From NCBI GenBank assembly GCA_937871165.1, contig CALMXK010000136.1, forward strand, positions 1 through 37,896: 37,896 nt of DNA. The letters run 5' to 3'. Below, piece after piece: positions 1 through 37,896 of the stretch; position 1 is the first letter of the stretch; every line of letters begins with the position of its first letter. The stretch is from an uncultured Actinomycetes bacterium. GTDB taxonomy: Bacteria; Actinomycetota; Thermoleophilia; Miltoncostaeales; Miltoncostaeaceae. The notes beneath the pieces are model-generated. The model did not search any database and was not told where the DNA came from. It was given only the letters and a program-made list of their open reading frames with translations. Both the position numbers and the translations under genes were made by a program.

Positions 1-5
1 TTTTT

Positions 6-75
6 AATGAGACGGCGACCACCGAGATCTACACTAGATCGCTCGTCGGCAGCGTCAGATGTGTATAAGAGACAG
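6..75 (+). other. Illumina Nextera P5 adapter (artefact)
   Basis: This is the Nextera P5-side adapter: the P5 flow-cell sequence (with one T-to-G difference near its start), the 8-base index TAGATCGC, the Read 1 linker and the Tn5 mosaic end finishing in GTGTATAAGAGACAG. It is library sequence, not genome, and follows five T residues. It is open in the frame of the truncated gene that follows, so a naive gene call would give that gene a false adapter-encoded N-terminus. Confidence 0.98.
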
Positions 76-243
76 ATGATCGACGACTCGCTCGCCCGCT
101 TGAGCTCGATCGCCGCAGGGCTCGCCCACCTGGCGCCGCAACCCATGGTGGAACGGCTGGTGCGCGAGAGCATCGGACATGGGGTCCAGGCGGACGACGT
201 CTGCGTGATCGCCGTCCGGCGCGAGCGCCCGTCGCCCGAGTGA
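76..243 (+). CDS. SpoIIE/PP2C-type phosphatase, C-terminal fragment
   Basis: Only the last 55 residues remain; the 5' part is cut off by the contig end and replaced by adapter. The tail has the layout seen at the end of SpoIIE/RsbU-type serine phosphatase domains: a helix with LVRESIGHG, then ADDVCVIAVRR, where the DD pair before the last beta strand matches the metal-binding Asp region of these PP2C-like enzymes. Such phosphatases dephosphorylate STAS anti-anti-sigma factors and so release a sigma factor. The neighbours (sigma factor, anti-sigma kinase, STAS protein) fit that role well. The sensor domains that would tell what signal it responds to lie outside the window. The ATG at 76 is internal, not the true start. 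Confidence 0.75.
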   Translation: MIDDSLARLSSIAAGLAHLAPQPMVERLVRESIGHGVQADDVCVIAVRRERPSPE

Positions 244-266: not shown

Positions 267-956
267 CTAGTGGTCCCCGACCTGGTCGCGCAATGTCGCG
301 AGCGCACGGGTGATCAACCGCGACACATGCATCTGCGAGATGCCGACCCGTTCGGCGATCTCGGACTGGGTGAGTCCTTGCGCGAACCGCATGAGCAGGA
401 TGTTCTGTTCGCGTTCGGGCAGTTCTGCGACCCGGTCGCTCAGGATCGCACGGGCTTCGGCCTGATCGAACCCGCTGTCGTCCGCTGCGATGTCGAGCGT
501 CGATTCGTCGTCGTCGTCGCTCGGTGTGCGCGACAGACTCATCGGCTGGTATGCCGCACCGACAGCGATCGCGTCGAGCACGCCGTCGGTGCTCAGATCG
601 GTATGTGCGGCCAACTCGGCGATGGACGGGCTGCGTCCGAGCTTGGTGGACAGCTCCTGGAGCGCCTGATTGACCGTCCGATGGGATTCCTGCAGCCCTC
701 TCGGAACGTGGACCATCCAGGTGCGATCGCGAAAGTGCCGACGGATCTCGCCGAGGATCGTCGGCGTTGCGAAGCTTGCGAGGTCCACGCCGCGCGTAGG
801 ATCGAACCGGTCGACCGCTTTGATCAGCCCGATGGTGCCGACCTGGATCAGGTCGTCGAGCGGCTCGCCGCGACGGGCATATCGCCCGGCGAGCGCCTTG
901 ACCAACGGCATGAGTTCTAGGATCCGCCGGTCACGGTCCGCGCGCTGGTCGGTCAC
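267..956 (-). CDS. RNA polymerase sigma factor, SigB/SigF/SigG type
   Basis: A group 3 (general stress or sporulation type) sigma factor of 229 residues from the chosen GTG. Region 2 covers about residues 15-85, with DLIQVGTIGLIKAVDRFDP and then FATPTILGEIRRHFRD; region 3 about 90-160; region 4 about 175-225 with the helix-turn-helix LTQSEIAERVGISQMHVSRL. It has no extracytoplasmic-type shortening. The frame stays open to an ATG at 1079, but that start would add 41 residues unlike the family and leave only 5 bases to the divergent anti-sigma gene. The GTG at 956 starts just before the conserved region and leaves a 128-base shared control region. Its activity is presumably held by the RsbW-like kinase encoded next to it. 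I cannot tell SigB from SigF by name. Confidence 0.92.
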   Translation of the reverse strand: MTDQRADRDRRILELMPLVKALAGRYARRGEPLDDLIQVGTIGLIKAVDRFDPTRGVDLASFATPTILGEIRRHFRDRTWMVHVPRGLQESHRTVNQALQELSTKLGRSPSIAELAAHTDLSTDGVLDAIAVGAAYQPMSLSRTPSDDDDESTLDIAADDSGFDQAEARAILSDRVAELPEREQNILLMRFAQGLTQSEIAERVGISQMHVSRLITRALATLRDQVGDH

Positions 957-1049
957 GTCAAACCCAGGACGACAGGTGTGCACATGCGCTGCATCGGACC
1001 AAAGACTACGGACGTGTGAACGTGTCTGTCGAGAATATTTCGAATGAAT

Positions 1050-1075
1050 GTTTCGACTCCGAACAAAGAGGGTAG
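1050..1075 (+). promoter_or_regulatory. SigB/SigF-type promoter of the anti-sigma gene
   Basis: GTTT (1050-1053), 16 bases, then GGGTAG (1070-1075) closely matches the promoter pattern known for actinobacterial and Bacillus stress sigma factors (GTTT, 14-17 bases, GGGTAT). Transcription should start about 1082, only a few bases before the GTG at 1085, so the message may be leaderless. The AAAGAGGG within it could instead be a poorly spaced ribosome site. It suggests that the sigma factor encoded opposite drives its own antagonist. Confidence 0.6.
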
Positions 1076-1084
1076 ACACCTACG

Positions 1085-1525
1085 GTGAGCCACCCCGGAC
1101 CACATCCTTCGACCGCCGATTCCAGCGTGGAGCTGCGACTTCCCGCAACGGCAAACCACGTTGTCGTGGCGCGGCAGGCGCTGAGCGGTGTGGCAGACAC
1201 GTTCGGGTGGGACGCGTCGTTTTCGGATGACGTTCGGTTGGCGCTCAGCGAGGCCTGCACGAACGTCGTTCAGCACGCATATCGCAATGTCTCCTCGCCG
1301 GGCGACATGATGATCTCCATCCTTGTGGAAGCCGGCCGGCTGCTTGTCGCCGTCAGCGACGACGGTGTTGGAATCGTGGCGCCGTCGCGAAGCAACGGAC
1401 TTGGACTTGGCCTGCCGCTGATGCGCACCCTGTCCGACGATTTGCAGCTGGACTCGAGCGACGGCCACACCGAGGTTCGGATGGCGTTCTCGCCGACGGT
1501 GGCGGTGGCGCATGCTGGGGAGTGA
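1085..1525 (+). CDS. Anti-sigma factor serine kinase (RsbW/SpoIIAB-like)
   Basis: A 146-residue GHKL-fold ATPase. The N-box is at about 49-65 (DDVRLALSEACTNVVQHAY, with Glu56 and Asn60 in the Mg-ATP positions), the G1 box DDGVG at 92-96, and a Gly-rich G2 region NGLGLGL at 104-110. Proteins of this family bind and silence a sigma factor, and also phosphorylate a STAS anti-anti-sigma protein on Ser; the unphosphorylated STAS protein pulls them off the sigma factor. Sigma factor, STAS protein and a phosphatase tail are all encoded within 2 kb. The GTG start at 1085 sits just after a stress-sigma-type promoter. It overlaps the next gene by 14 bases, so the two are co-transcribed. Confidence 0.9.
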   Translation: MSHPGPHPSTADSSVELRLPATANHVVVARQALSGVADTFGWDASFSDDVRLALSEACTNVVQHAYRNVSSPGDMMISILVEAGRLLVAVSDDGVGIVAPSRSNGLGLGLPLMRTLSDDLQLDSSDGHTEVRMAFSPTVAVAHAGE

Positions 1526-1817
1526 GATCACGCTCCGCGTCGATCCGGGCGAGGTCGGTCAGAACGTCCTTCGCCGAACCGTCCGTGCCGTGTGCGCACC
1601 GACGACGCTTCCGTTGGATCGCGTCGACGACCTGCTGATCATCTGTGACGAGCTTCTTGCACACGACGGGTGGGACAGGGCCTTCACCCTGACTGCACTC
1701 ACCGACGGTGTTCGCGTGATCGTCCGTGAGATGGATGCCGGGCCGATCGTTCCCGCGCTTGCAAGTTCCGTCGTCACCGACGACGGGCAGCTTGCGATCA
1801 CCGTGCTCGCCCGCTGA
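1512..1817 (+). CDS. Small degenerate HATPase-like protein, function unknown
   Basis: A 101-residue protein overlapping the anti-sigma gene by 14 bases. Its layout echoes that gene at low similarity: an N-terminal strand and helix, DRVDDLLIICDELLAHDG at about 36-53 in the place of the N-box, and TDGVRVIVREMDAGP at about 64-78 in the place of the strand before the G1 box. The Asn of the N-box and the DxGxG glycine box are absent, and there is no G2 lid, so it is unlikely to hydrolyse ATP. It may be a shortened, non-catalytic relative that binds the sigma factor, the STAS protein or the kinase. The relationship is my reading of the pattern and would need a profile search. The ATG at 1512 is the only reasonable start. 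Confidence 0.6.
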   Translation: MLGSEITLRVDPGEVGQNVLRRTVRAVCAPTTLPLDRVDDLLIICDELLAHDGWDRAFTLTALTDGVRVIVREMDAGPIVPALASSVVTDDGQLAITVLAR

Positions 1818-1836: not shown

Positions 1837-2178
1837 CTACTCGCTCCGATCAACCCCGTCGGTCGACGCCACCTCGGGGATGCGCCCCCGCAGATTGATG
1901 AGCTCAAGCAGTCGGGCGACCGCCGGAGAGGGGCAGCAGATCGCAAAATGCCGACCTGCGCCGTTGGCGAGTCCCTGGGCCTCGACCAGTGCCCGGATGC
2001 CGCTTGAATCCATGAAGGAGACGTCGGAGAGCTCGAACACGATCGGGCCCTCGGTCTCACGGATGGTGTCCGTCAACTGCTCGGCCGTTGCGACGTCCAC
2101 CTCGCCATGAAAGCGTGCGACCGTCGTTTGGCCCGTCGACGCGACCGCTACACGAAGAATGTGTCCCGAGTCGGTCAT
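1837..2178 (-). CDS. STAS-domain anti-anti-sigma factor (SpoIIAA/RsbV-like)
   Basis: A 113-residue single STAS domain. The phosphorylation loop reads VSFMDSSGIRALVEA (residues 53-67), with the Ser pair after Asp57 as the expected phosphate acceptor, as in SpoIIAA and RsbV. In the unphosphorylated state such proteins capture the anti-sigma kinase and free the sigma factor. The frame is open upstream to 2364, inside gnd, but ATG 2178 starts the domain correctly. No ribosome site is visible; a -10-like TAAGTT lies 8 bases upstream, so it may be leaderless. It also lies only 29 bases downstream of gnd on the same strand, so read-through from pgi-gnd is possible. Confidence 0.9.
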   Translation of the reverse strand: MTDSGHILRVAVASTGQTTVARFHGEVDVATAEQLTDTIRETEGPIVFELSDVSFMDSSGIRALVEAQGLANGAGRHFAICCPSPAVARLLELINLRGRIPEVASTDGVDRSE

Positions 2179-2186
2179 CGAAAGCG

Positions 2187-2192
2187 AACTTA
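2187..2192 (-). promoter_or_regulatory. Possible -10 box of the STAS gene
   Basis: On the minus strand TAAGTT fits the TAnnnT form of actinobacterial -10 boxes. It ends 8 bases before ATG 2178, which would give a leaderless message. I see no clear -35. Confidence 0.35.
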
Positions 2193-2207
2193 GCAGACGG
2201 CCGCGGG

Positions 2208-3218
2208 CTACTTCTTCTCGTGATGGCCGCCGAACTGCTTGCGCATCGCGGAGAGCACCTTGTCGGCGAAGAGCCCTTCGCCGCGAGAGCTGAAGCGTTC
2301 GAACAGTGAGGCGGTCAACACGTGGGCGGGGACACCGGTTTCGACCGCCGCTTGCACCGTCCACCGTCCCTCGCCGCTGTCGGACACCCGGCCGCTGAAC
2401 TCCTCAAGGTCGGGATCGTCGTGCAGGGCGATCGCCGTGAGATCGAGCAACCAGCTGGCCACGACACTGCCACGCCGCCACAGTTCGGCGATGGCGGCGG
2501 TGTCCAGGTCGTACTGGTAGTACTCGGGGTGGGTGAGCGGCGCGGTCTCCGCGTCGTGCACCTGGTCCGCTTTGCCCGCGTTCGCCTTGCGCAGAATGGC
2601 GAAGCCCTCCGCGTAGGCCGCCATGGCGCCGTACTCGATGCCGTTGTGGACCATCTTGACGAAGTGACCGGCACCCGCCGGACCACAGTGCAGGTATCCC
2701 TGCTCTTCGGTTCCCCCGTCACCGGCCCGGCCGGGCGTGCGCGGCGCGGACGCGATTCCCGGGGCCAGCGTGGCGAAGATCGGATCGAGCCTGCCCACCG
2801 CGTCGGCGTTGCCGCCGATCATCATGCAGTAGCCGCGCTCAAGTCCGAACACGCCGCCGCTCGTGCCGACGTCGATGAAGTCGATGCCGCGTTCGGCAAG
2901 CTCCGCGGCACGTGCCATGTCGTCGCGGTAGTAGCTGTTGCCGCCGTCGATGACCACGTCGCCGGTGCTGAGAACCTCGGCGACATCCGCGATCACCCGC
3001 GCGGTGATGCCTGCCGGCACCATCACCCACACCGCACGTGGTCCATCGAGCTTCGACGCGAGTTCCGCGAGCGTGTACGCGGGAATGGCGCCTTCCGCGG
3101 CCAGGGCGGTGACGGCGTCGGCGTTGACGTCGAACACCACGCACGTGTGGCCGTCGCGCATCAGGCGTCTGACGATGTTCGCGCCCATGCGTCCCAGCCC
3201 CACCATGCCAAGTTGCAT
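2208..3218 (-). CDS. gnd: 6-phosphogluconate dehydrogenase, decarboxylating (short Gnd type)
   Basis: Oxidises 6-phosphogluconate to ribulose 5-phosphate and CO2 with NAD(P)+, in the oxidative pentose phosphate pathway in the cytoplasm. The 336-residue protein opens with the Rossmann motif [13 protein letters not shown], followed by [11 protein letters not shown] and the catalytic segment [13 protein letters not shown], whose Lys is the catalytic base. It is the short form of about 300-340 residues (YqeC/GntZ-like), not the 470-residue E. coli form. The frame is open to ATG 3263, but ATG 3218 starts directly at the Rossmann strand and has GAGGA 7 bases upstream, so I prefer it. It follows pgi by 49 bases and is probably in one operon with it. 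Confidence 0.93.
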
Positions 3219-3267
3219 GGTGGTCCTCGGTGTGTCCGAACCAGATGAAGTAGTCATGACCACCAGC

Positions 3268-4902
3268 CTACTGACGTCGACGTGCCTCGCGATAGCGTCG
3301 AATCAGCGCGTTGGTGGATGCGTCGTGGGTCAGCTCGGGCGCGGCGACGGCGGTGAGCTCCGGGGTGATGCGTTTGGCGAGCACCTTGCCGAGCTCCACG
3401 CCCCACTGGTCGAACGAGTTGATCTGCCACACGGCACCCATGGTGAACACGCGGTGCTCGTACAGGGCGATCAGCTGCCCAAGCACCGACGGGGTGAGCC
3501 GCGGCGCAAGGATCGTCGTCGTCGGGCGGTTGCCCGCGAACACGCGATGGGGCACCTGATGCGGTGGTACACCCTCGGCTTCGACCTCGTCGCGGGTCTT
3601 GCCGAAGGCCAGGGCCTGCGTTTGCGCGAAGAAGTTCGCCATCAGCTGGTCATGGTGTCCGTCGACCTCATGGCGAGGATGCATGAACCCGATGAAGTCC
3701 GCGGGGATCAGCCGCGTCCCCTGGTGGATCAGCTGGTAATAGGCATGCTGCCCGTTGGTTCCCGGGGTGCCCCAGACGATCGGCCCGGTTTCGTATCGCA
3801 CGGGTTCACCGTCGAGCGTGACCGATTTGCCGTTGCTCTCCATGTCCAGCTGTTGCAGGTACGCCGGGAAACGCGACAGATAGTTGCAGTAGGGGAGCAC
3901 GGCCTGCGTGTGCGCCCCGAAGAAGTTGGCGTACCAGATGCCGAGCAGACCCATCATCATCGGCACGTTCTGCTCAGGCGGCGCCGTGCGAAAGTGTTCG
4001 TCCACGGTGTGGAAGCCGGCGAGCATCTCGTCGAAGCCCTCCGGACCGATGGACAACATGATCGACAGGCCGATGGCGGAATCCATGCTGTAGCGCCCAC
4101 CGACCCAGTCCCAGAAGCCGAACATGTTGGCGGGGTCGATGCCGAACTTCATCACCTCGTCGGCATTCGTCGAAACGGCCACGAAGTGTCTGGCCACCGC
4201 AGCGTCGTCGCCGAGCTTGCCGAGCAACCACCGGCGGGCCGAGAGCGCATTCGTGATGGTCTCGATGGTTGTGAAGGTCTTCGACGCGACGATGAACAGC
4301 GTCTCTTCGGGATCCAGGTCGGCGGTGGCCTCCCAGATGTCGTCGCCGTCGACGTTCGAGACGAACCGAAACCGCATCGCCCGGTCACTCTCGTCGCGAA
4401 GGGCTTCGACCGCCATGGCCGGGCCGAGATCCGAGCCGCCGATCCCGATGTTCACGATGTTGCGGATGCGGCGCTCCGAAAACCCGCGCCACGCACCCGA
4501 GCGCACCCGGCGGGCGAAGTCCCGCATCTGGTCGAGGACCGCGTGCACGTCCGCGCTGACGTGTTGGCCGTCGACCTCGAGATCGGTGCCTTCGGGGAGC
4601 CGCAGCGCCGTGTGGAGGACTGCGCGGTCCTCGGTGACGTTGATGTGCGCGCCGCGAAACATCGCGTCCACACGTGCCGGGACACCGGTGGCGTGTGCAA
4701 GGGCGCTGAGCAGGTCGATCGTCGTCGACGTCGCCCGGTGCTTGGAGAAGTCGACAACCAGGTCGCCGACCTCGAGGGTCATCGCATCGGCGCGCTCAGG
4801 ATGATCCGCGAAGAGCGTCCGAAGATGCGTCCCCGCGATCTCGCGATGATGGTCGGCGAGCGCCGCCCAAGCCGGTGTGTCGATGATCTGGTCGTCGGCC
4901 AC
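3268..4902 (-). CDS. pgi: Glucose-6-phosphate isomerase
   Basis: Interconverts glucose 6-phosphate and fructose 6-phosphate in glycolysis and gluconeogenesis. The protein has 544 residues, normal for the bacterial long form. Visible signatures are [14 protein letters not shown] for phosphate binding, the first family signature [13 protein letters not shown], and [14 protein letters not shown] near the C-terminus, which contains the second. The start is GTG 4902, with GGAGG 4 bases upstream. Gnd follows on the same strand, which puts the entry to glycolysis and the exit of the oxidative pentose pathway in one operon. A 108-base gap separates it from the AAA+ gene upstream, enough for its own promoter. 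Confidence 0.96.
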
Positions 4903-5010
4903 ACGTCCTCCAAACGATCATTGCCGAATGGGGTGAACGCTACCTTGCCGCTCCCTGGACGAACGGATAGGCGTGGGTCCAGTCGTCGCGTCGACCCTGT
5001 CCGGAGGCCA

Positions 5011-6321
5011 CTAGGTCAGGCGATGATCGTCGATGTAGGCGAGGGTGTCGTCGTACATCCCACCGCGATTTGCGGCCATTGCGTGCTCGACCGACGCGGA
5101 GAACCACTTCGGGGCCGACGGACGGATCTCGCGCAGCGCCCGTGTCATATGCCCGGGGCCGACGGCGGGCGTCGCGCCCAGTGCGTCATTTGCGGCGAGT
5201 TCCTGCGCACGTTCGCAAAGTTGCGTCAGGTCGTTGCCCGAGAAGTGCACGGTGCGCTCGACAATCCATCCGACGTCCAACCCGGCGAGGGTGACGGTCC
5301 GAAACTGAAACCGAAGGATCGCCTCACGCGCGCGGGCATCCGGCGGGGCGACGAGGAGGGTTCGGTCGATCGCGCCGCTGGTGAGCAGCGACACGTCGAT
5401 GTGCCACGGCTCCGTGCTGCCGGCGACCGTGGTGATCCCGCGATTTGCCGCAGTGTTCGCCAGTTCGGCCGCGAGGCGCGTCACCAACCGGCGATCTGGC
5501 GCGTCGTCACCGGTCGCCCGCACGCCGACACGTTCAATGTCATTCAAAAACAGCACGCAGGGGGCTGCGGCACGGGCGGCGTTGAAGAGGCGATGGATGT
5601 TCTCGCGCGGGTCGCCGGGCCACTCGAGCGACGAGCCCATCTCGATCGGCAGAAAACCCGCGTTCAGCTCGCCGGCGAGCGTGCGGGCGAAGAAGCTCTT
5701 TCCACAGCCGGGGGGACCAAACATCAGGACGCCGCCGATCTGCCGATCGGGGTGCTCTGCGAGTGGCTTGAGTACCACGTCGCTGATGCGTTGCTTGACG
5801 GCATCGACGCCGATGATGCTCTTGAAGGACAGCCGGGGGCGCTCGATGGTCTCGGGATCGATCACCAGCACGGTGGGCGTCGGCGGCGCGTCGAGGTCGT
5901 CGGGAAGCGCGTGCGGCACATCTGCGGCCGGTGGCGCATCGGGGGCCGTCGCGGGCGTCTGCGCGTCGGGGAGCGGCGGTGGGGTGGAGTGCGTTTCGCC
6001 TGCGGGCGGCACGAAGCCGGACCAGACGTCGGGAACGGCCTCCTCGTGGTAGTTCGCGAGGGCGTCTGCGACGCGGTTGAACGCGTTTGCTCGACGGTCG
6101 TGCGCCACTTCGGCGCAGGCTCCGGCCGCACGGTACCCGTCGGGATTGTCCGGATGGGCCGACATGATCGTCTCGGCGTGGACCATCGCTTCGATGGACC
6201 GTCCGGCGTCCAACAGGAGCGTGATCAGCTTGAGTCGCGCCGCGACATCGTCCGGATGGGTCGCGACCATCGTCTCGAGGTGGGCCAAGGGACTGGCTGT
6301 GGAAGCATCGATTGTGCCCAT
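5011..6321 (-). CDS. TPR/AAA+ ATPase with altered catalytic motifs
   Basis: A 436-residue protein of unknown role. Residues about 12-90 look like TPR-type helix pairs (LAHLETMVATHPDD, then AETIMSAHPDNPDGY). About 100-155 is a Pro/Ala-rich linker, and 165-425 is an AAA+ module of the FtsH/VPS4/p97 kind. Walker A is intact (GPPGCGKS, 202-209). Walker B reads VLFLND (256-261) in place of the usual hhhhDE. The Sensor 1 position holds Thr303 instead of Asn, and the arginine-finger region reads GAIDR, keeping only the second Arg. It may bind ATP but hydrolyse it slowly, or act as a scaffold. No membrane segment or signal peptide is seen. It is alone on this strand and divergent from the aldolase gene. 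A start further upstream is not supported. Confidence 0.82.
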   Translation of the reverse strand: MGTIDASTASPLAHLETMVATHPDDVAARLKLITLLLDAGRSIEAMVHAETIMSAHPDNPDGYRAAGACAEVAHDRRANAFNRVADALANYHEEAVPDVWSGFVPPAGETHSTPPPLPDAQTPATAPDAPPAADVPHALPDDLDAPPTPTVLVIDPETIERPRLSFKSIIGVDAVKQRISDVVLKPLAEHPDRQIGGVLMFGPPGCGKSFFARTLAGELNAGFLPIEMGSSLEWPGDPRENIHRLFNAARAAAPCVLFLNDIERVGVRATGDDAPDRRLVTRLAAELANTAANRGITTVAGSTEPWHIDVSLLTSGAIDRTLLVAPPDARAREAILRFQFRTVTLAGLDVGWIVERTVHFSGNDLTQLCERAQELAANDALGATPAVGPGHMTRALREIRPSAPKWFSASVEHAMAANRGGMYDDTLAYIDDHRLT

Positions 6322-6387
6322 TGCCTGGATCTATCGGCGCGACCGCGCTGAAAGTTAATGGGCATTTGACGCGTCTTGAGGACACCC

Positions 6388-6402
6388 CGCCCGTTTCGGG
6401 CG
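6388..6402. repeat. 15-bp inverted repeat between AAA+ and aldolase genes
   Basis: CGCCCG, TTT, CGGGCG is a perfect inverted repeat in the 135-base gap between the two divergent genes. It lies 55 bases upstream of the aldolase start. It could be an operator or an mRNA leader hairpin; nothing else supports either. Confidence 0.3.
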
Positions 6403-6456
6403 CAAAGTGCGTCAGGCAGACTAGAAGGAGCAATCTTCGACGAAGGGACACCGGAA

Positions 6457-7533
6457 ATGGCGAAGACCACCACCGCCACGCTCGCAGGGATCGAGGCGAT
6501 CCTCGGCGACTCCGCATCAGGCCTGCTCGACCATACGTGCACGACGATCGCCAAGGAGCGCATCGCCGCGCCCGGCCCGGATTTCGTCGACCGCGTGACA
6601 TCGGCGAGCGACCGCTCGTCGCGCGTGTTGAAGTCGCTGTCGGACATGTACAACCACGGTCGCCTGGCGGGCACCGGGTACCTGTCGATCCTTCCGGTGG
6701 ATCAGGGAATCGAGCATTCCGGCGGTGCGTCGTTCGCCAAGAACCCCGACTACTTCGACCCGAACCGCATTGTTGAACTTGCGATCGAGGGCGGCTGCAA
6801 CGCCGTCGCATCGACCCTCGGCGTGCTGGGACAGACGGCTCGGCGCTACGCGCACCGCATCCCGTTCATGCTCAAGATCAACCACAACGAGTTCCTGAGC
6901 TACCCGAACGGCTACGACCAAATCATGTTCGCGTCGATCAAACAGGCGTTCGACATGGGCTGCGTCGCGGTCGGCGCGACCATCTACTTCGGGTCCGAGG
7001 AGTCCAAGCGTCAGATCCAGGAAGTCTCGCAGGCGTTCGCCGCCGCGCACGAGCTCGGGATGGCCACCGTGCTGTGGTGCTACCTGCGAAGCCCCGACTT
7101 CAAGACGAAGGAACACGACTACCACGTCGCGACCGACCTCACCGGCCAGGCGAACCACCTGGGAGTCACGATCGGGGCGGACATCATCAAACAGAAGCTG
7201 CCGGAGACCGTCGCCCCCGGCTTCGACGATCTGAAGTTCGGCAAGTCCGACCCGCGGATGTACAGCGAGCTGATGAGCGACAACCCGATCGACATGACCC
7301 GCTACCAGATCGCCAACTGCTACATGGGCCGCATCCCGCTCATCAACTCGGGCGGCGCGTCCGGAGCGAATGATCTGGGCGATGCGGTCTTCACGGCCGT
7401 GGTGAACAAGCGCGCAGGTGGCGCGGGCCTCATCAGCGGTCGCAAGGCGTTCCAGAAGCCGCTTGCGGACGGTGTCGCGCTCTTGAACGCGATCCAGGAC
7501 GTCTACCTCTGCAAGGACATCGACCTGGCCTGA
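6457..7533 (+). CDS. fbaB: Fructose-bisphosphate aldolase, class I (FbaB/DhnA type)
   Basis: Cleaves fructose 1,6-bisphosphate to dihydroxyacetone phosphate and glyceraldehyde 3-phosphate through a lysine Schiff base, without metal. The 358-residue protein has the archaeal/E. coli FbaB layout: [17 protein letters not shown] early, then MLKINHNEF, and [10 protein letters not shown], whose Lys is the expected Schiff-base residue. The phosphate loop INSGGASG and a GRKAFQKP segment are near the C-terminus. ATG 6457 is chosen over the in-frame ATG 6376 because AAGGGA lies 8 bases upstream and the protein then starts like its family. It is a single-gene unit: divergent from the AAA+ gene and followed by a strong hairpin. 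With pgi nearby, much of upper glycolysis is local. Confidence 0.93.
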
Positions 7534-7697: not shown

Positions 7698-8945
7698 ATG
7701 CGATCGGCGAACGACATCGCGGAACTTCTTGAGCGGACCCGGGAGCGCACCCACGCGCTGTACGCACCGCTCGGTGACGACGATGTCGTTCGGACACCCA
7801 CGTCCATCATGAGCCCACCGGTGTGGGACCTCGGCCACATCGCAGCCTACGAAGAGCTGTGGGTGGCCTGCACGCTCGGTGGCATGCGGTCCCTGTACCC
7901 CGAGCTTCAGCGAACCTACGACGCCTTCGAGACGCCGCGTTCAAGCCGCACGGAGGTGCCGCTGCTCGGACGTGTCGAGTGCGAGCGCTATCTGGCGCAG
8001 GTCCAGGACCGAACGCTTGAGGTCTTGGATCGCATCGACATGCATGCGGACGTTCCGCTCGCCGAGAACGGCTTCGTCTTCGATCTGGTTGCACAGCACG
8101 AGGCACAGCACACCGAGACGGTGTTGCAGACCCTCCAGCTGTTTGACGCGGGCGAGTACCGGCCGCCCCGGTCGCCCGCGTCCCATGCGGCGGTTGCCGC
8201 ACGTGGCAGGGTCGAGATCGCGGGCGGGGACGTCGCAGTCGGATCGGACAATCGTGCGTTCACGTACGACTGCGAGCGGCCGCGCCACCATGTGCACCTG
8301 GCGCCATACGCCATGTCGCGCACACAGGTCACCAACGCCGAGCACGTCGCCTTCATCGAGGACGGCGGATACGAGCGCCAGGAGCTGTGGAGTCGCGACG
8401 GGTGGTCGTGGCGCTGCGCCAACGGCGTGAACGCCCCGCTGTATTGGCGTCGCGGCGACGGGGGCGCATGGCTGACACGCTCCTTCGACGAGTACCGCCC
8501 CGTCGAAGCCGACCACCCGGTCTGCCACGTGTCGCTCTACGAGGCACAGGCACATGCGACGTGGGCCGGTGCGCGATTGCCGACCGAAGCTGAGTGGGAA
8601 CACGCCGCCGCGGGCGCGATCGTGGACGATGCTCGCCTGGACCAACTGTGCTTCGAAACCGCCGCGGTGGGTGCGTCCGGCGGTGGGCGCTCCACGGTCG
8701 GCTGCGAGGACATGTTCGGCAACGTCTGGGAGTGGACGTCCACGCTGTTTGCCCCGTACACGGGGTTCAAAGTGGATCCCTACCCGGAATACGCCCACGT
8801 CTTCTTCGGCGGCGACTACTTCGTGCTTCGCGGCGGGTCCTGGGCCACCCAGGCGATCGCCATGCGGACGACGTTCCGCAACTGGGATCACCCGTTCCGG
8901 CGTCAGATCTTCGCCGGGTTTCGTCTCGCATGGGATGGTGTGTAG
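7698..8945 (+). CDS. egtB: EgtB: iron-dependent sulfoxide synthase of ergothioneine biosynthesis
   Basis: Joins hercynine (trimethyl-histidine) to gamma-glutamylcysteine or cysteine with O2 on a mononuclear iron, forming the sulfoxide that leads to ergothioneine. The 415 residues comprise an N-terminal DinB-like four-helix domain (about 1-160) and a C-terminal formylglycine-generating-enzyme-like domain. The iron triad is visible: His47 in WDLGHIAAYEELW, and His134 and His138 in AQHEAQHTE. The FGE part shows RLPTEAEWEHAA, GNVWEWTSTLF and the end FRNWDHPFRRQIFAGFRLAWD. From memory that end resembles mycobacterial enzymes that use gamma-glutamylcysteine, but egtA and egtC are not in this window. 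It is coupled to egtD by a one-base overlap and preceded by a Crp-like operator. Confidence 0.95.
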   Translation: MRSANDIAELLERTRERTHALYAPLGDDDVVRTPTSIMSPPVWDLGHIAAYEELWVACTLGGMRSLYPELQRTYDAFETPRSSRTEVPLLGRVECERYLAQVQDRTLEVLDRIDMHADVPLAENGFVFDLVAQHEAQHTETVLQTLQLFDAGEYRPPRSPASHAAVAARGRVEIAGGDVAVGSDNRAFTYDCERPRHHVHLAPYAMSRTQVTNAEHVAFIEDGGYERQELWSRDGWSWRCANGVNAPLYWRRGDGGAWLTRSFDEYRPVEADHPVCHVSLYEAQAHATWAGARLPTEAEWEHAAAGAIVDDARLDQLCFETAAVGASGGGRSTVGCEDMFGNVWEWTSTLFAPYTGFKVDPYPEYAHVFFGGDYFVLRGGSWATQAIAMRTTFRNWDHPFRRQIFAGFRLAWDGV

Positions 8946-9937
8946 TGCAGATCAGTCCGCCGATGAACCGACTCCGTATCCATCGCCACAGCGTCGATCC
9001 CCACGCGGGTCTTTTGCGTGACGTGCGCGCGGGCCTGGGTGGGGCGGTCAAGACGCTCCCACCGAAGTACTTCTACGACGCCGTCGGCAGTGATCTGTTC
9101 GAACAGATCACGGAACTTCCCGAGTACTACCAAACGCGCACCGAGCTGCAGATCCTGCTTCGCGACGCGTCACGCATCATCGACCACCACCGCCCGACGG
9201 AGCTCGTCGAGTTGGGCTCGGGGTCGTCCAGAAAGACCGTTGCGCTGCTCGACGCGATGGCCGACGCCGGGCTGCTTCGGCGCTTCATCCCGTTCGACGT
9301 GTCCTCGAGCGCCATCGCCGACGCCGCCGAGCGCCTGTGCGACCGCTTTCCCGAACTGCAGGTGGAGGGCGTGCTCGGCGACTTCGACCACCACATTCCG
9401 ACGATCCCGCCCCGCGGGACCGACGGGCGCAGGATGGTGATCTTTCTCGGCGGCACGATCGGGAACTTCCACCCGGATGACCGCGCGCCGTTCCTTCGTG
9501 ACCTGCGGGGACTGTTGCGCTCGGGCGACAGCCTGCTGGTGGGGATCGACCTGGTCAAGGATCCGGCGGTCCTCGAAGCCGCCTACAACGACGGGGCGGG
9601 AGTGACCGCCGCGTTCAACCGCAACGTCCTGCACGTGATGAACCGGGAACTCGGATCGGACTTCGTTCCAGAGCGGTTCACCCATGTGGCGATCTACGAT
9701 CGCGAGAACGCCTGGATCGAGATGCGTCTGCGCTCCGACGTCGCCCAGCGGGTCACGGTGCCCGCGCTCGACATGGTCGTGGACTTTGCCGTGGGCGAAG
9801 AGATGCGCACGGAGATCTCGGCCAAGTTCACCCCGCAGCGGTTCGCCGACGAGCTGTCGGCGGCGGGGCTTGCCGACACCGAGTTCTTCACCGATGACGA
9901 CCGGCGCTTTGCGGTCGCTGTCGCCGAGGTCGCCTAG
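8945..9937 (+). CDS. egtD: EgtD: histidine N-alpha-methyltransferase
   Basis: Transfers three methyl groups from S-adenosylmethionine to histidine to make hercynine, the first step of ergothioneine synthesis. The 330-residue protein carries LPPKYFYDAVGSDLFEQI and LPEYYQTRTE near the N-terminus, the SAM-binding loop VELGSGSSRKT, and IFLGGTIGNFHPDD, all typical of the EgtD (DUF2260) family. The GTG at 8945 shares its first base with the egtB stop (TAGTG), implying translational coupling; ATG 8963 is the alternative and loses only six residues. It feeds its product directly to EgtB. The 3' end overlaps the convergent Crp-type gene by 4 bases at CTAG, so the two stop codons are interlocked and no terminator separates them. 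Confidence 0.94.
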   Translation: MQISPPMNRLRIHRHSVDPHAGLLRDVRAGLGGAVKTLPPKYFYDAVGSDLFEQITELPEYYQTRTELQILLRDASRIIDHHRPTELVELGSGSSRKTVALLDAMADAGLLRRFIPFDVSSSAIADAAERLCDRFPELQVEGVLGDFDHHIPTIPPRGTDGRRMVIFLGGTIGNFHPDDRAPFLRDLRGLLRSGDSLLVGIDLVKDPAVLEAAYNDGAGVTAAFNRNVLHVMNRELGSDFVPERFTHVAIYDRENAWIEMRLRSDVAQRVTVPALDMVVDFAVGEEMRTEISAKFTPQRFADELSAAGLADTEFFTDDDRRFAVAVAEVA

Positions 9938-37826: not shown

Positions 37827-37896
37827 CTGTCTCTTATACACATCTGACGCTGCCGACGAGCGATCTAGTGTAGATCTCGGTGGTCGCCGTATCATT
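37827..37896 (-). other. Illumina Nextera P5 adapter (artefact)
   Basis: The reverse complement of the Nextera P5-side adapter: mosaic end CTGTCTCTTATACACATCT, Read 1 linker, index GCGATCTA (reverse of TAGATCGC) and P5. The same index appears at the other contig end, in inverted orientation. It is library sequence, not genome. Confidence 0.98.

What the first reader, a model, noticed from the sequence alone, without database searches (positions are those of the whole stretch)
1512..1817. Degenerate HATPase-like partner inside a partner-switching locus
This small protein overlaps the anti-sigma kinase gene and keeps a trace of its fold, but lacks the N-box Asn and the glycine boxes. A non-catalytic relative co-translated with the kinase could be a decoy or an adaptor, an uncommon addition to the usual kinase/STAS/phosphatase set.
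Basis: inference. Interest (0 to 1): 0.5.

Follow-up and report, generated by a model that had tools for sequence, protein, structure and literature searches.

The report
Kinase-dead anti-sigma partner of RsbW kinase
A short gene next to a stress-response kinase encodes a catalytically dead copy of the same fold, and in relatives that have it, it is nearly always translated with the kinase or fused to it, which suggests that the kinase carries its own dedicated sigma-factor holder.

Summary
ORF 1512-1817 overlaps the RsbW-type kinase gene by 14 bases. The best structural matches of its AlphaFold model are RsbW, SpoIIAB and UsfX anti-sigma factors. N-box Asn and glycine boxes are gone.

It belongs to a family ("DEG") without an accepted Pfam match, found in Thermoleophilia (Actinomycetota). 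Of 109 distinct strong members in 100 of 399 class genomes, 54 are fused behind a kinase, 53 lie just downstream of one, 2 do neither. Catalytic Asn: 107 of 107 kinases, 1 of 107 partners.

DEG genomes rarely hold the separate kinase-dead gene that class-mates carry upstream of sigma (2 of 60). The best tree joins DEG to that gene, not to the kinase, but the alternative is not rejected.

Best reading: DEG is the sigma-holding half of a two-part anti-sigma factor; the kinase is the catalytic half. That division of labour is shown in Mycobacterium smegmatis (PMC7693655); I found no report of the halves coupled or fused. Sigma binding and kinase-DEG contact are untested.

The parts
1512..1817 (+). 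DEG: kinase-dead RsbW-fold protein, 101 aa; beta1-alpha1 with the conserved Arg kept, N-box Asn and G1/G2 boxes lost, some 20-24 residues shorter than other members
1085..1525 (+). KIN: RsbW-type serine kinase, 146 aa; N-box (SEACTN) and glycine boxes (DDGVGI, GLGLGL) seen in the sequence
   Evidence: HATPase_c_2 E 7.2e-24; closest solved structure by sequence B. subtilis RsbW 6m36, E 7.9e-16
1512..1525 (+). 14-base overlap of the KIN end and the DEG start (translational coupling inferred)
   Evidence: in relatives
267..1079 (-). SIG: sigma-70 family factor with regions 2, 3 and 4; the true start is probably lower, perhaps the GTG at 956, because the listed ORF runs through the promoter-like site
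   Evidence: profile match 285-935
1837..2178 (-). STAS anti-anti-sigma protein, convergent with DEG
   Evidence: STAS E 2.2e-16
1050..1075 (+). SigF/SigB-type promoter-like site GTTT-N16-GGGTAG, ending 9 bases before the KIN start codon (consensus recalled)
76..243 (+). C-terminal fragment of a SpoIIE/RsbU-type PP2C phosphatase, cut by adapter at the contig end
   Evidence: (SpoIIE E 0.0025, below cut-off)

Best explanation
DEG is a kinase-dead protein of the RsbW/SpoIIAB/UsfX fold and works as one half of a two-part anti-sigma factor. The upstream gene product (KIN) supplies catalysis and phosphorylates the STAS protein. DEG, probably related to the kinase-dead gene that other families of the class keep upstream of the sigma gene, keeps the beta1/alpha1 region and holds the sigma factor, as UsfX/RsbW1 does in mycobacteria. 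Overlapping genes, or fusion into one chain, fix the halves at 1:1. When a PP2C phosphatase dephosphorylates the STAS protein, it displaces sigma, which then transcribes KIN-DEG and restores the brake. Shown by calls: fold (predicted), motif loss, pairing and fusion, gene neighbourhood, promoter-like site. Inferred: that DEG holds sigma, that KIN phosphorylates this STAS protein, that KIN and DEG touch, and the feedback.
For: Fold: window DEG model pLDDT 77.2, pTM 0.69; its ten best entries are RsbW, SpoIIAB, UsfX or the Rv1364c RsbU-RsbW protein, Z 10.1-11.0; Foldseek best 6m37 RsbW E 1.4e-4. Profile A1 finds only three PDB sequences at E up to 10, all RsbW: Mtb anti-sigma-F 0.0094 and 0.011, B. 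subtilis RsbW 0.21. Pairing: 107 of 109 distinct DEG domains are fused to (54) or within 400 bases behind (53) a kinase; 40 of 41 named loci (17 fused, 23 split); a candidate DEG start overlapping the kinase stop as NTGA in 20 of 23 split pairs. Motifs: KIN Glu 107/107, Asn 107/107, G1 Asp 106/107; DEG Glu 3/107, Asn 1/107; alpha1 Arg 107/107 KIN and 101/107 DEG. That Arg is B. subtilis RsbW Arg23 by the alignment, which contacts the STAS partner (PMC7340262). Replacement: a separate strong UP gene in 2 of 60 DEG genomes; the UP profile's best place is the DEG locus in 53 of the 56 genomes with any match. Best tree: kinases one group 100/96, DEG one group 95/94, DEG with 8 of 10 same-class UP rows 100/95. 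Analogy: in M. smegmatis kinase-negative RsbW1 binds SigF, while the kinase RsbW2 phosphorylates RsfB and does not bind SigF (PMC7693655). Promoter-like sites upstream of KIN in 21 of 40 loci against 19 of 1340 control windows.
Against: The AU test does not reject a tree with all 19 UP rows as one clade apart from DEG and KIN (p 0.371). In the best tree 4 of 19 UP rows (L144, L145, L149, L152, all from outside the class) fall on the kinase side and 2 of 10 same-class UP rows (L131, L132) lie away from DEG; no named UsfX was in the tree, so common descent with UsfX is not shown. Two DEG genomes do have a separate UP gene. In M. smegmatis RsbW1 did not copurify with RsbW2. KIN keeps the Arg and could hold sigma itself, as B. 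subtilis RsbW does. The window copy has the longest end branch (2.43) and is shortened, so it may be partly degraded. Promoter-like sites are seen in only 5 of 23 split loci. 11 of 109 members showed neither SIG nor STAS within 2 kb of the stretch held. The 60 DEG genomes were the first of my list, mostly the strongest members, not a random draw; the 38 genomes were picked as UP carriers, so 38 of 38 is by construction.
Confidence: 0.55

Rival explanations
1. DEG is a regulatory pseudokinase subunit: KIN is both kinase and sigma holder, and DEG completes an obligate KIN:DEG dimer through beta1/alpha1, leaving one active site per dimer and tuning kinase activity or asymmetric sigma binding.
For: 1:1 pairing and fusions; the fused model has two domains of the same topology with pTM 0.77; RsbW dimerises through beta1 and alpha1 (PMC7340262) and DEG is predicted to keep both.
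Against: No coordinates or inter-domain error were available, so no interface was seen; RsbW1 and RsbW2 did not copurify in M. smegmatis; the UP profile scores DEG above KIN in nearly all genomes where it matches either.
Confidence: 0.25
2. DEG is an RsbW3-like antagonist or decoy: it binds the anti-sigma factor and frees sigma.
For: M. smegmatis RsbW3 lacks RsfB kinase activity in vitro and raises SigF activity by pairing with RsbW1 (PMC7693655; called a heterodimer in PMC10950880).
Against: 58 of 60 DEG genomes checked lack a separate strong UP-type gene for it to antagonise; it could still antagonise KIN. A decoy fused 1:1 to the kinase seems of little use (inference).
Confidence: 0.1
3. 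The window copy is a decaying remnant of the family without function.
For: Longest end branch in the tree, 20-24 residues shorter, same-genus relative only 32% identical.
Against: Intact in-frame ORF with coding composition, conserved Arg kept. The family is under purifying selection: median dN/dS 0.34 for DEG and 0.16 for KIN in 140 comparisons, all below 1, many of them the same genomes under two locus ids; the window was not among them.
Confidence: 0.06

Closest known systems
UsfX / RsbW1 (mycobacterial anti-SigF; PDB 8jzt, 8ih8)
   Same: RsbW fold, kinase activity absent (RsbW1), linked to a SigF-type sigma, a separate kinase exists (PMC7693655); best PDB sequence match of the DEG profile, weakly
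   Different: usfX/rsbW1 forms an operon with the sigF gene downstream of it (PMC10950880) and the kinase RsbW2 is encoded elsewhere; DEG lies behind, or is fused to, the kinase, and most DEG (104 of 107, not the window copy) have also lost the catalytic Glu
RsbW / SpoIIAB (Bacillus)
   Same: predicted fold, beta1/alpha1 elements, conserved Arg in alpha1
   Different: RsbW does both jobs in one catalytic protein; DEG has no intact N-box or G1 box
Rv1364c (M. tuberculosis; PDB 3ke6)
   Same: partner-switching modules joined in one chain
   Different: joins PAS, PP2C, GHKL kinase and STAS domains, not a kinase and a kinase-dead anti-sigma-like domain
RsbW3 (M. smegmatis)
   Same: RsbW homologue without detected kinase activity
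   Different: antagonist that pairs with RsbW1, which is a second kinase-negative RsbW; 58 of 60 DEG genomes checked have no separate strong UP gene

Membership tests
RsbW/SpoIIAB-type GHKL fold | beta1-alpha1-alpha2-beta2-beta3-...-beta4-beta5 fold that matches RsbW above other folds | tested here: met
   (Z 10.1-11.0, rmsd 2.6-3.4 A over 94-100 residues; LvrC 8.9; next 7.4); predicted model, residues 74-101 weak
RsbW serine kinases | N-box Glu and Asn, DxGxG G1 box | tested here: not met
   Glu 3/107 (window among them), Asn 1/107, DxGxG 2/107 in DEG
UsfX/RsbW1-type kinase-negative anti-sigma factors | RsbW fold without kinase motifs | tested here: met
   kinase-negative status of RsbW1 from PMC7693655
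UsfX/RsbW1-type kinase-negative anti-sigma factors | gene directly upstream of the sigma gene in one operon | tested here: not met
   DEG follows KIN, and in the window the sigma gene is divergent from KIN
UsfX/RsbW1-type kinase-negative anti-sigma factors | common descent with sigma-adjacent kinase-dead genes rather than with the kinase | tested here: inconclusive
   best tree joins DEG to 8 of 10 same-class UP rows, AU test does not reject the alternative, no named UsfX in the tree
UsfX/RsbW1-type kinase-negative anti-sigma factors | binds the cognate sigma factor | not testable with these tools
   no complex prediction or binding assay offered
RsbW3-like antagonist | binds another kinase-negative anti-sigma factor | not testable with these tools
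   no separate strong UP gene in 58 of 60 DEG genomes checked

The most novel reading that the evidence does not exclude
A genetically hard-wired asymmetric anti-sigma factor: KIN and DEG form a heterodimer (one chain in the fused lineages) with one catalytic and one sigma-holding half, so that phosphorylation of the STAS protein and sigma release happen on the two halves of one particle. It would take the place of the symmetric RsbW/SpoIIAB dimer in several families of Thermoleophilia.
Probability: 0.35. Interest if true: 0.7.

Novelty: new variant of a known kind. Interest (0 to 1): 0.5.

Why it matters
B. subtilis RsbW holds sigma and phosphorylates its antagonist with the same protein. A lineage in which these jobs may sit in two coupled or fused domains, one of them dead, is a natural separation-of-function system, and would let one test directly whether sigma holding needs the nucleotide site. 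It would also give a role to the C-terminal half of the fused proteins: in 5 of 5 tested, Pfam recognises only the N-terminal HATPase domain above its cut-off.

Tried and rejected
Single-protein scan of genome contigs confirmed nothing. Pfam and NCBIfam scans of the 16-row family gave weak or scattered hits: HATPase_c_2 in 3 of 16, best E 0.0027 (18.1 bits against a cut-off of 27.4); one row hits RsbA_anti_sig at 2.1e-4. Considered and rejected: a recent tandem copy of the kinase (kinase profile 3.5 bits on the window protein; separate groups in the tree); an unrelated small protein; a single-genome oddity. Matches above E 0.01 were not relied on. The fused-protein lists are filled by the kinase domain and say little about the DEG half. 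Inter-domain geometry could not be read because no coordinates are given. The E-value of the window protein is circular, since it was a row of A1; one search repeats it without that row, with a different placement of the gap. 'His at the Asn position' holds for gap-free numbering only; the profile alignment opens a gap there.

Rows left out: one search covers the window, the matches down to about 1.5e-16 that I fetched, and none of the weaker ones; G211:C1:2172735, G016:C139 and G367:C257 were not fetched. G015 (4.2e-14) shows SIG then DEG with no kinase in the 3.3 kb held (L143) and is not among the 109. The two pairless members (L122 G055, L210 G243) are not in the 107-pair counts. One search used 60 of the 100 DEG genomes. 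The tree used the first 34 of 77 non-redundant pairs. The composition of the sigma gene came from an out-of-frame slice and is not used. Of the 93 phylum genomes with a match, neighbourhoods were read only for the loci returned.

Papers: PMC7693655 outline, passages and section 19; PMC10950880 passages; PMC7340262 passages; all others only in search listings. That I found no report of kinase-DEG tandems or fusions rests on searches of an open-access library, and subscription journals are mostly absent. The papers behind 8jzt and 8ih8 were looked for and not found there.

After the one-time check I lowered the best explanation from 0.60 to 0.55 and raised the first rival from 0.22 to 0.25, because 4 of 19 UP rows lie on the kinase side of the tree and no named UsfX was in it. 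I also withdrew the wording that the pair is the rule in the class, since 163 of 399 class genomes have no match at E 0.01.

Full report
Observation. ORF 1512-1817 (+) overlaps the kinase gene 1085-1525 by 14 bases. Around it lie a sigma-70 family gene (267-1079, -), a STAS gene (1837-2178, -) and the tail of a PP2C phosphatase (76-243) cut by an adapter-bearing contig end. The small protein has no significant Pfam match, but its codon-position composition resembles the kinase and STAS genes.

Fold. With 40 relatives from named records, AlphaFold2 gives pLDDT 77.2 and pTM 0.69; residues 74-101 are weak. The ten best entries in the second-look alignment are RsbW, SpoIIAB, UsfX and Rv1364c structures (Z 10.1-11.0, rmsd 2.6-3.4 A over 94-100 residues); LvrC follows at 8.9 and the next fold at 7.4. 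Foldseek agrees (6m37, E 1.4e-4). The fused relative L161 folds as two domains with the same order of main strands and helices (pLDDT 83.3, pTM 0.77).

A family. Searches of 101 genomes with the small protein and with the kinase hit the same contigs side by side in many cases. A 16-row profile finds matches in 236 of 399 genomes of the class at E 0.01 or better, weak relatives included, and none in 163, many of them in the window's own family. In 30 of 30 best loci the kinase lies before DEG. Of 109 distinct strong domains from 100 genomes, 54 are fused to the kinase, 53 lie within 400 bases downstream of one on the same strand, 2 do neither. Of 41 loci fetched with a fused query, 40 have the pair (17 fused, 23 split); the other is a Eubacteriales locus in STAS-kinase-sigma order. 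In 20 of 23 split pairs a candidate DEG start overlaps the kinase stop as NTGA. Outside the class the profile finds only weaker relatives (E 8.7e-10 and worse); in the 16 such loci returned, the matched gene lies directly upstream of a sigma gene in 16 of 16 and by eye lacks the N-box Asn four residues after the Glu in 16 of 16; in 3 of them (L150, L151, L160) my kinase profile scores it above the DEG profile.

Residues. In 107 pairs, KIN has the catalytic Glu and Asn in 107 each and the G1 Asp in 106. DEG has Glu in 3 (one is the window), Asn in 1, a DxGxG motif in 2. The alpha1 Arg is in 107 KIN and 101 DEG; the Asp at the start of alpha2 in 105 KIN and 96 DEG, plus Glu in 8 DEG. By the alignment these are Arg23 and Asp42 of B. 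subtilis RsbW, which contact the STAS protein; beta1 and alpha1 form the RsbW dimer interface (PMC7340262). Two other contact positions, Lys44 and Glu49, are lost in most DEG. Kinase and DEG profiles match each other at probability 82.7, E 9.5e-6 in a single comparison. DEG evolves faster than KIN but under constraint: median dN/dS 0.34 against 0.16 in 140 comparisons, many repeating the same genomes under two locus ids.

Origin. Other families of the class carry a DEG-like gene directly upstream of sigma ('UP'), as UP-SIG or UP-SIG-KIN. A profile of 11 UP proteins finds a strong separate UP gene in 2 of 60 DEG genomes (G213, G141). In 53 of the 56 genomes with any match the best place is the DEG locus, in G070 the kinase; G000 itself has no match at 1e-5. 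In 38 genomes picked as UP carriers UP is confirmed in all 38, as expected from the choice. The best tree has all kinases in one group (100/96), DEG in one group (95/94) and DEG with 8 of 10 same-class UP rows (100/95), on only 126 columns. The other two same-class UP rows lie elsewhere, and 4 UP rows from outside the class lie on the kinase side. The AU test does not reject all UP as one clade (p 0.371). Descent of DEG from UP is therefore favoured, not shown, and kinship with mycobacterial UsfX in particular rests on weak profile matches. The UP profile's own best PDB match is B. subtilis RsbW (1.2e-16), then UsfX (5.5e-6).

Regulation. A GTTT-N16-GGGTAG site lies at 1050-1075, 9 bases before the kinase start codon. 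Such sites lie within 350 bases upstream of the kinase domain in 21 of 40 loci (16 of 17 fused, 5 of 23 split) against 19 of 1340 control windows. That this consensus belongs to SigB/SigF-type sigma factors is recalled. Autoregulation is inferred.

Mechanism. In M. smegmatis, kinase-negative RsbW1 binds SigF, RsbW2 phosphorylates the STAS protein RsfB and does not bind SigF, and RsbW3 antagonises RsbW1 (PMC7693655; PMC10950880). The most economical reading is that KIN works like RsbW2 and DEG like RsbW1, here coupled or fused. Against certainty: RsbW1 did not copurify with RsbW2, sigma binding is untested, and KIN could hold sigma itself. The chief rival is a regulatory pseudokinase in a KIN:DEG dimer; a decoy is less likely.

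Verdict. Observation confirmed; interpretation partly supported. A new variant of the known partner-switching anti-sigma factors: an unnamed kinase-dead family tied one-to-one to its kinase in Thermoleophilia.

Noticed in passing
window 5-75 and 37827-37896: Illumina adapter sequence at both contig ends; 40 matches to the window's first 1500 bases were scored in the draft genome, nearly all of them this adapter at contig ends.
   Followed up: partly
window 7698-9937 (+): Two ORFs that read like EgtB and EgtD (ergothioneine biosynthesis); recognised from the translation, no search run.
   Followed up: no
window 2208-4902 (-): ORFs that read like 6-phosphogluconate dehydrogenase and glucose-6-phosphate isomerase beside the sigma locus; recognised from the translation only.
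   Followed up: no
L122 (G055) 3357-4105: Second DEG copy convergent with a divergent kinase instead of behind it.
   Followed up: no
L133 (G093) 1968-6841: One f3 locus holds two UP-type genes, a sigma gene, two kinase matches (one weak) and four STAS matches within 5 kb.
   Followed up: no
L112 (G139) 3212-5521: A fused KIN-DEG gene flanked by two sigma genes.
   Followed up: no
L144-L146, L148-L160: In 16 of 16 best loci outside the class (Actinomycetota) a kinase-dead RsbW-like gene sits directly upstream of a sigma gene, a wider pattern than the mycobacterial case.
   Followed up: partly
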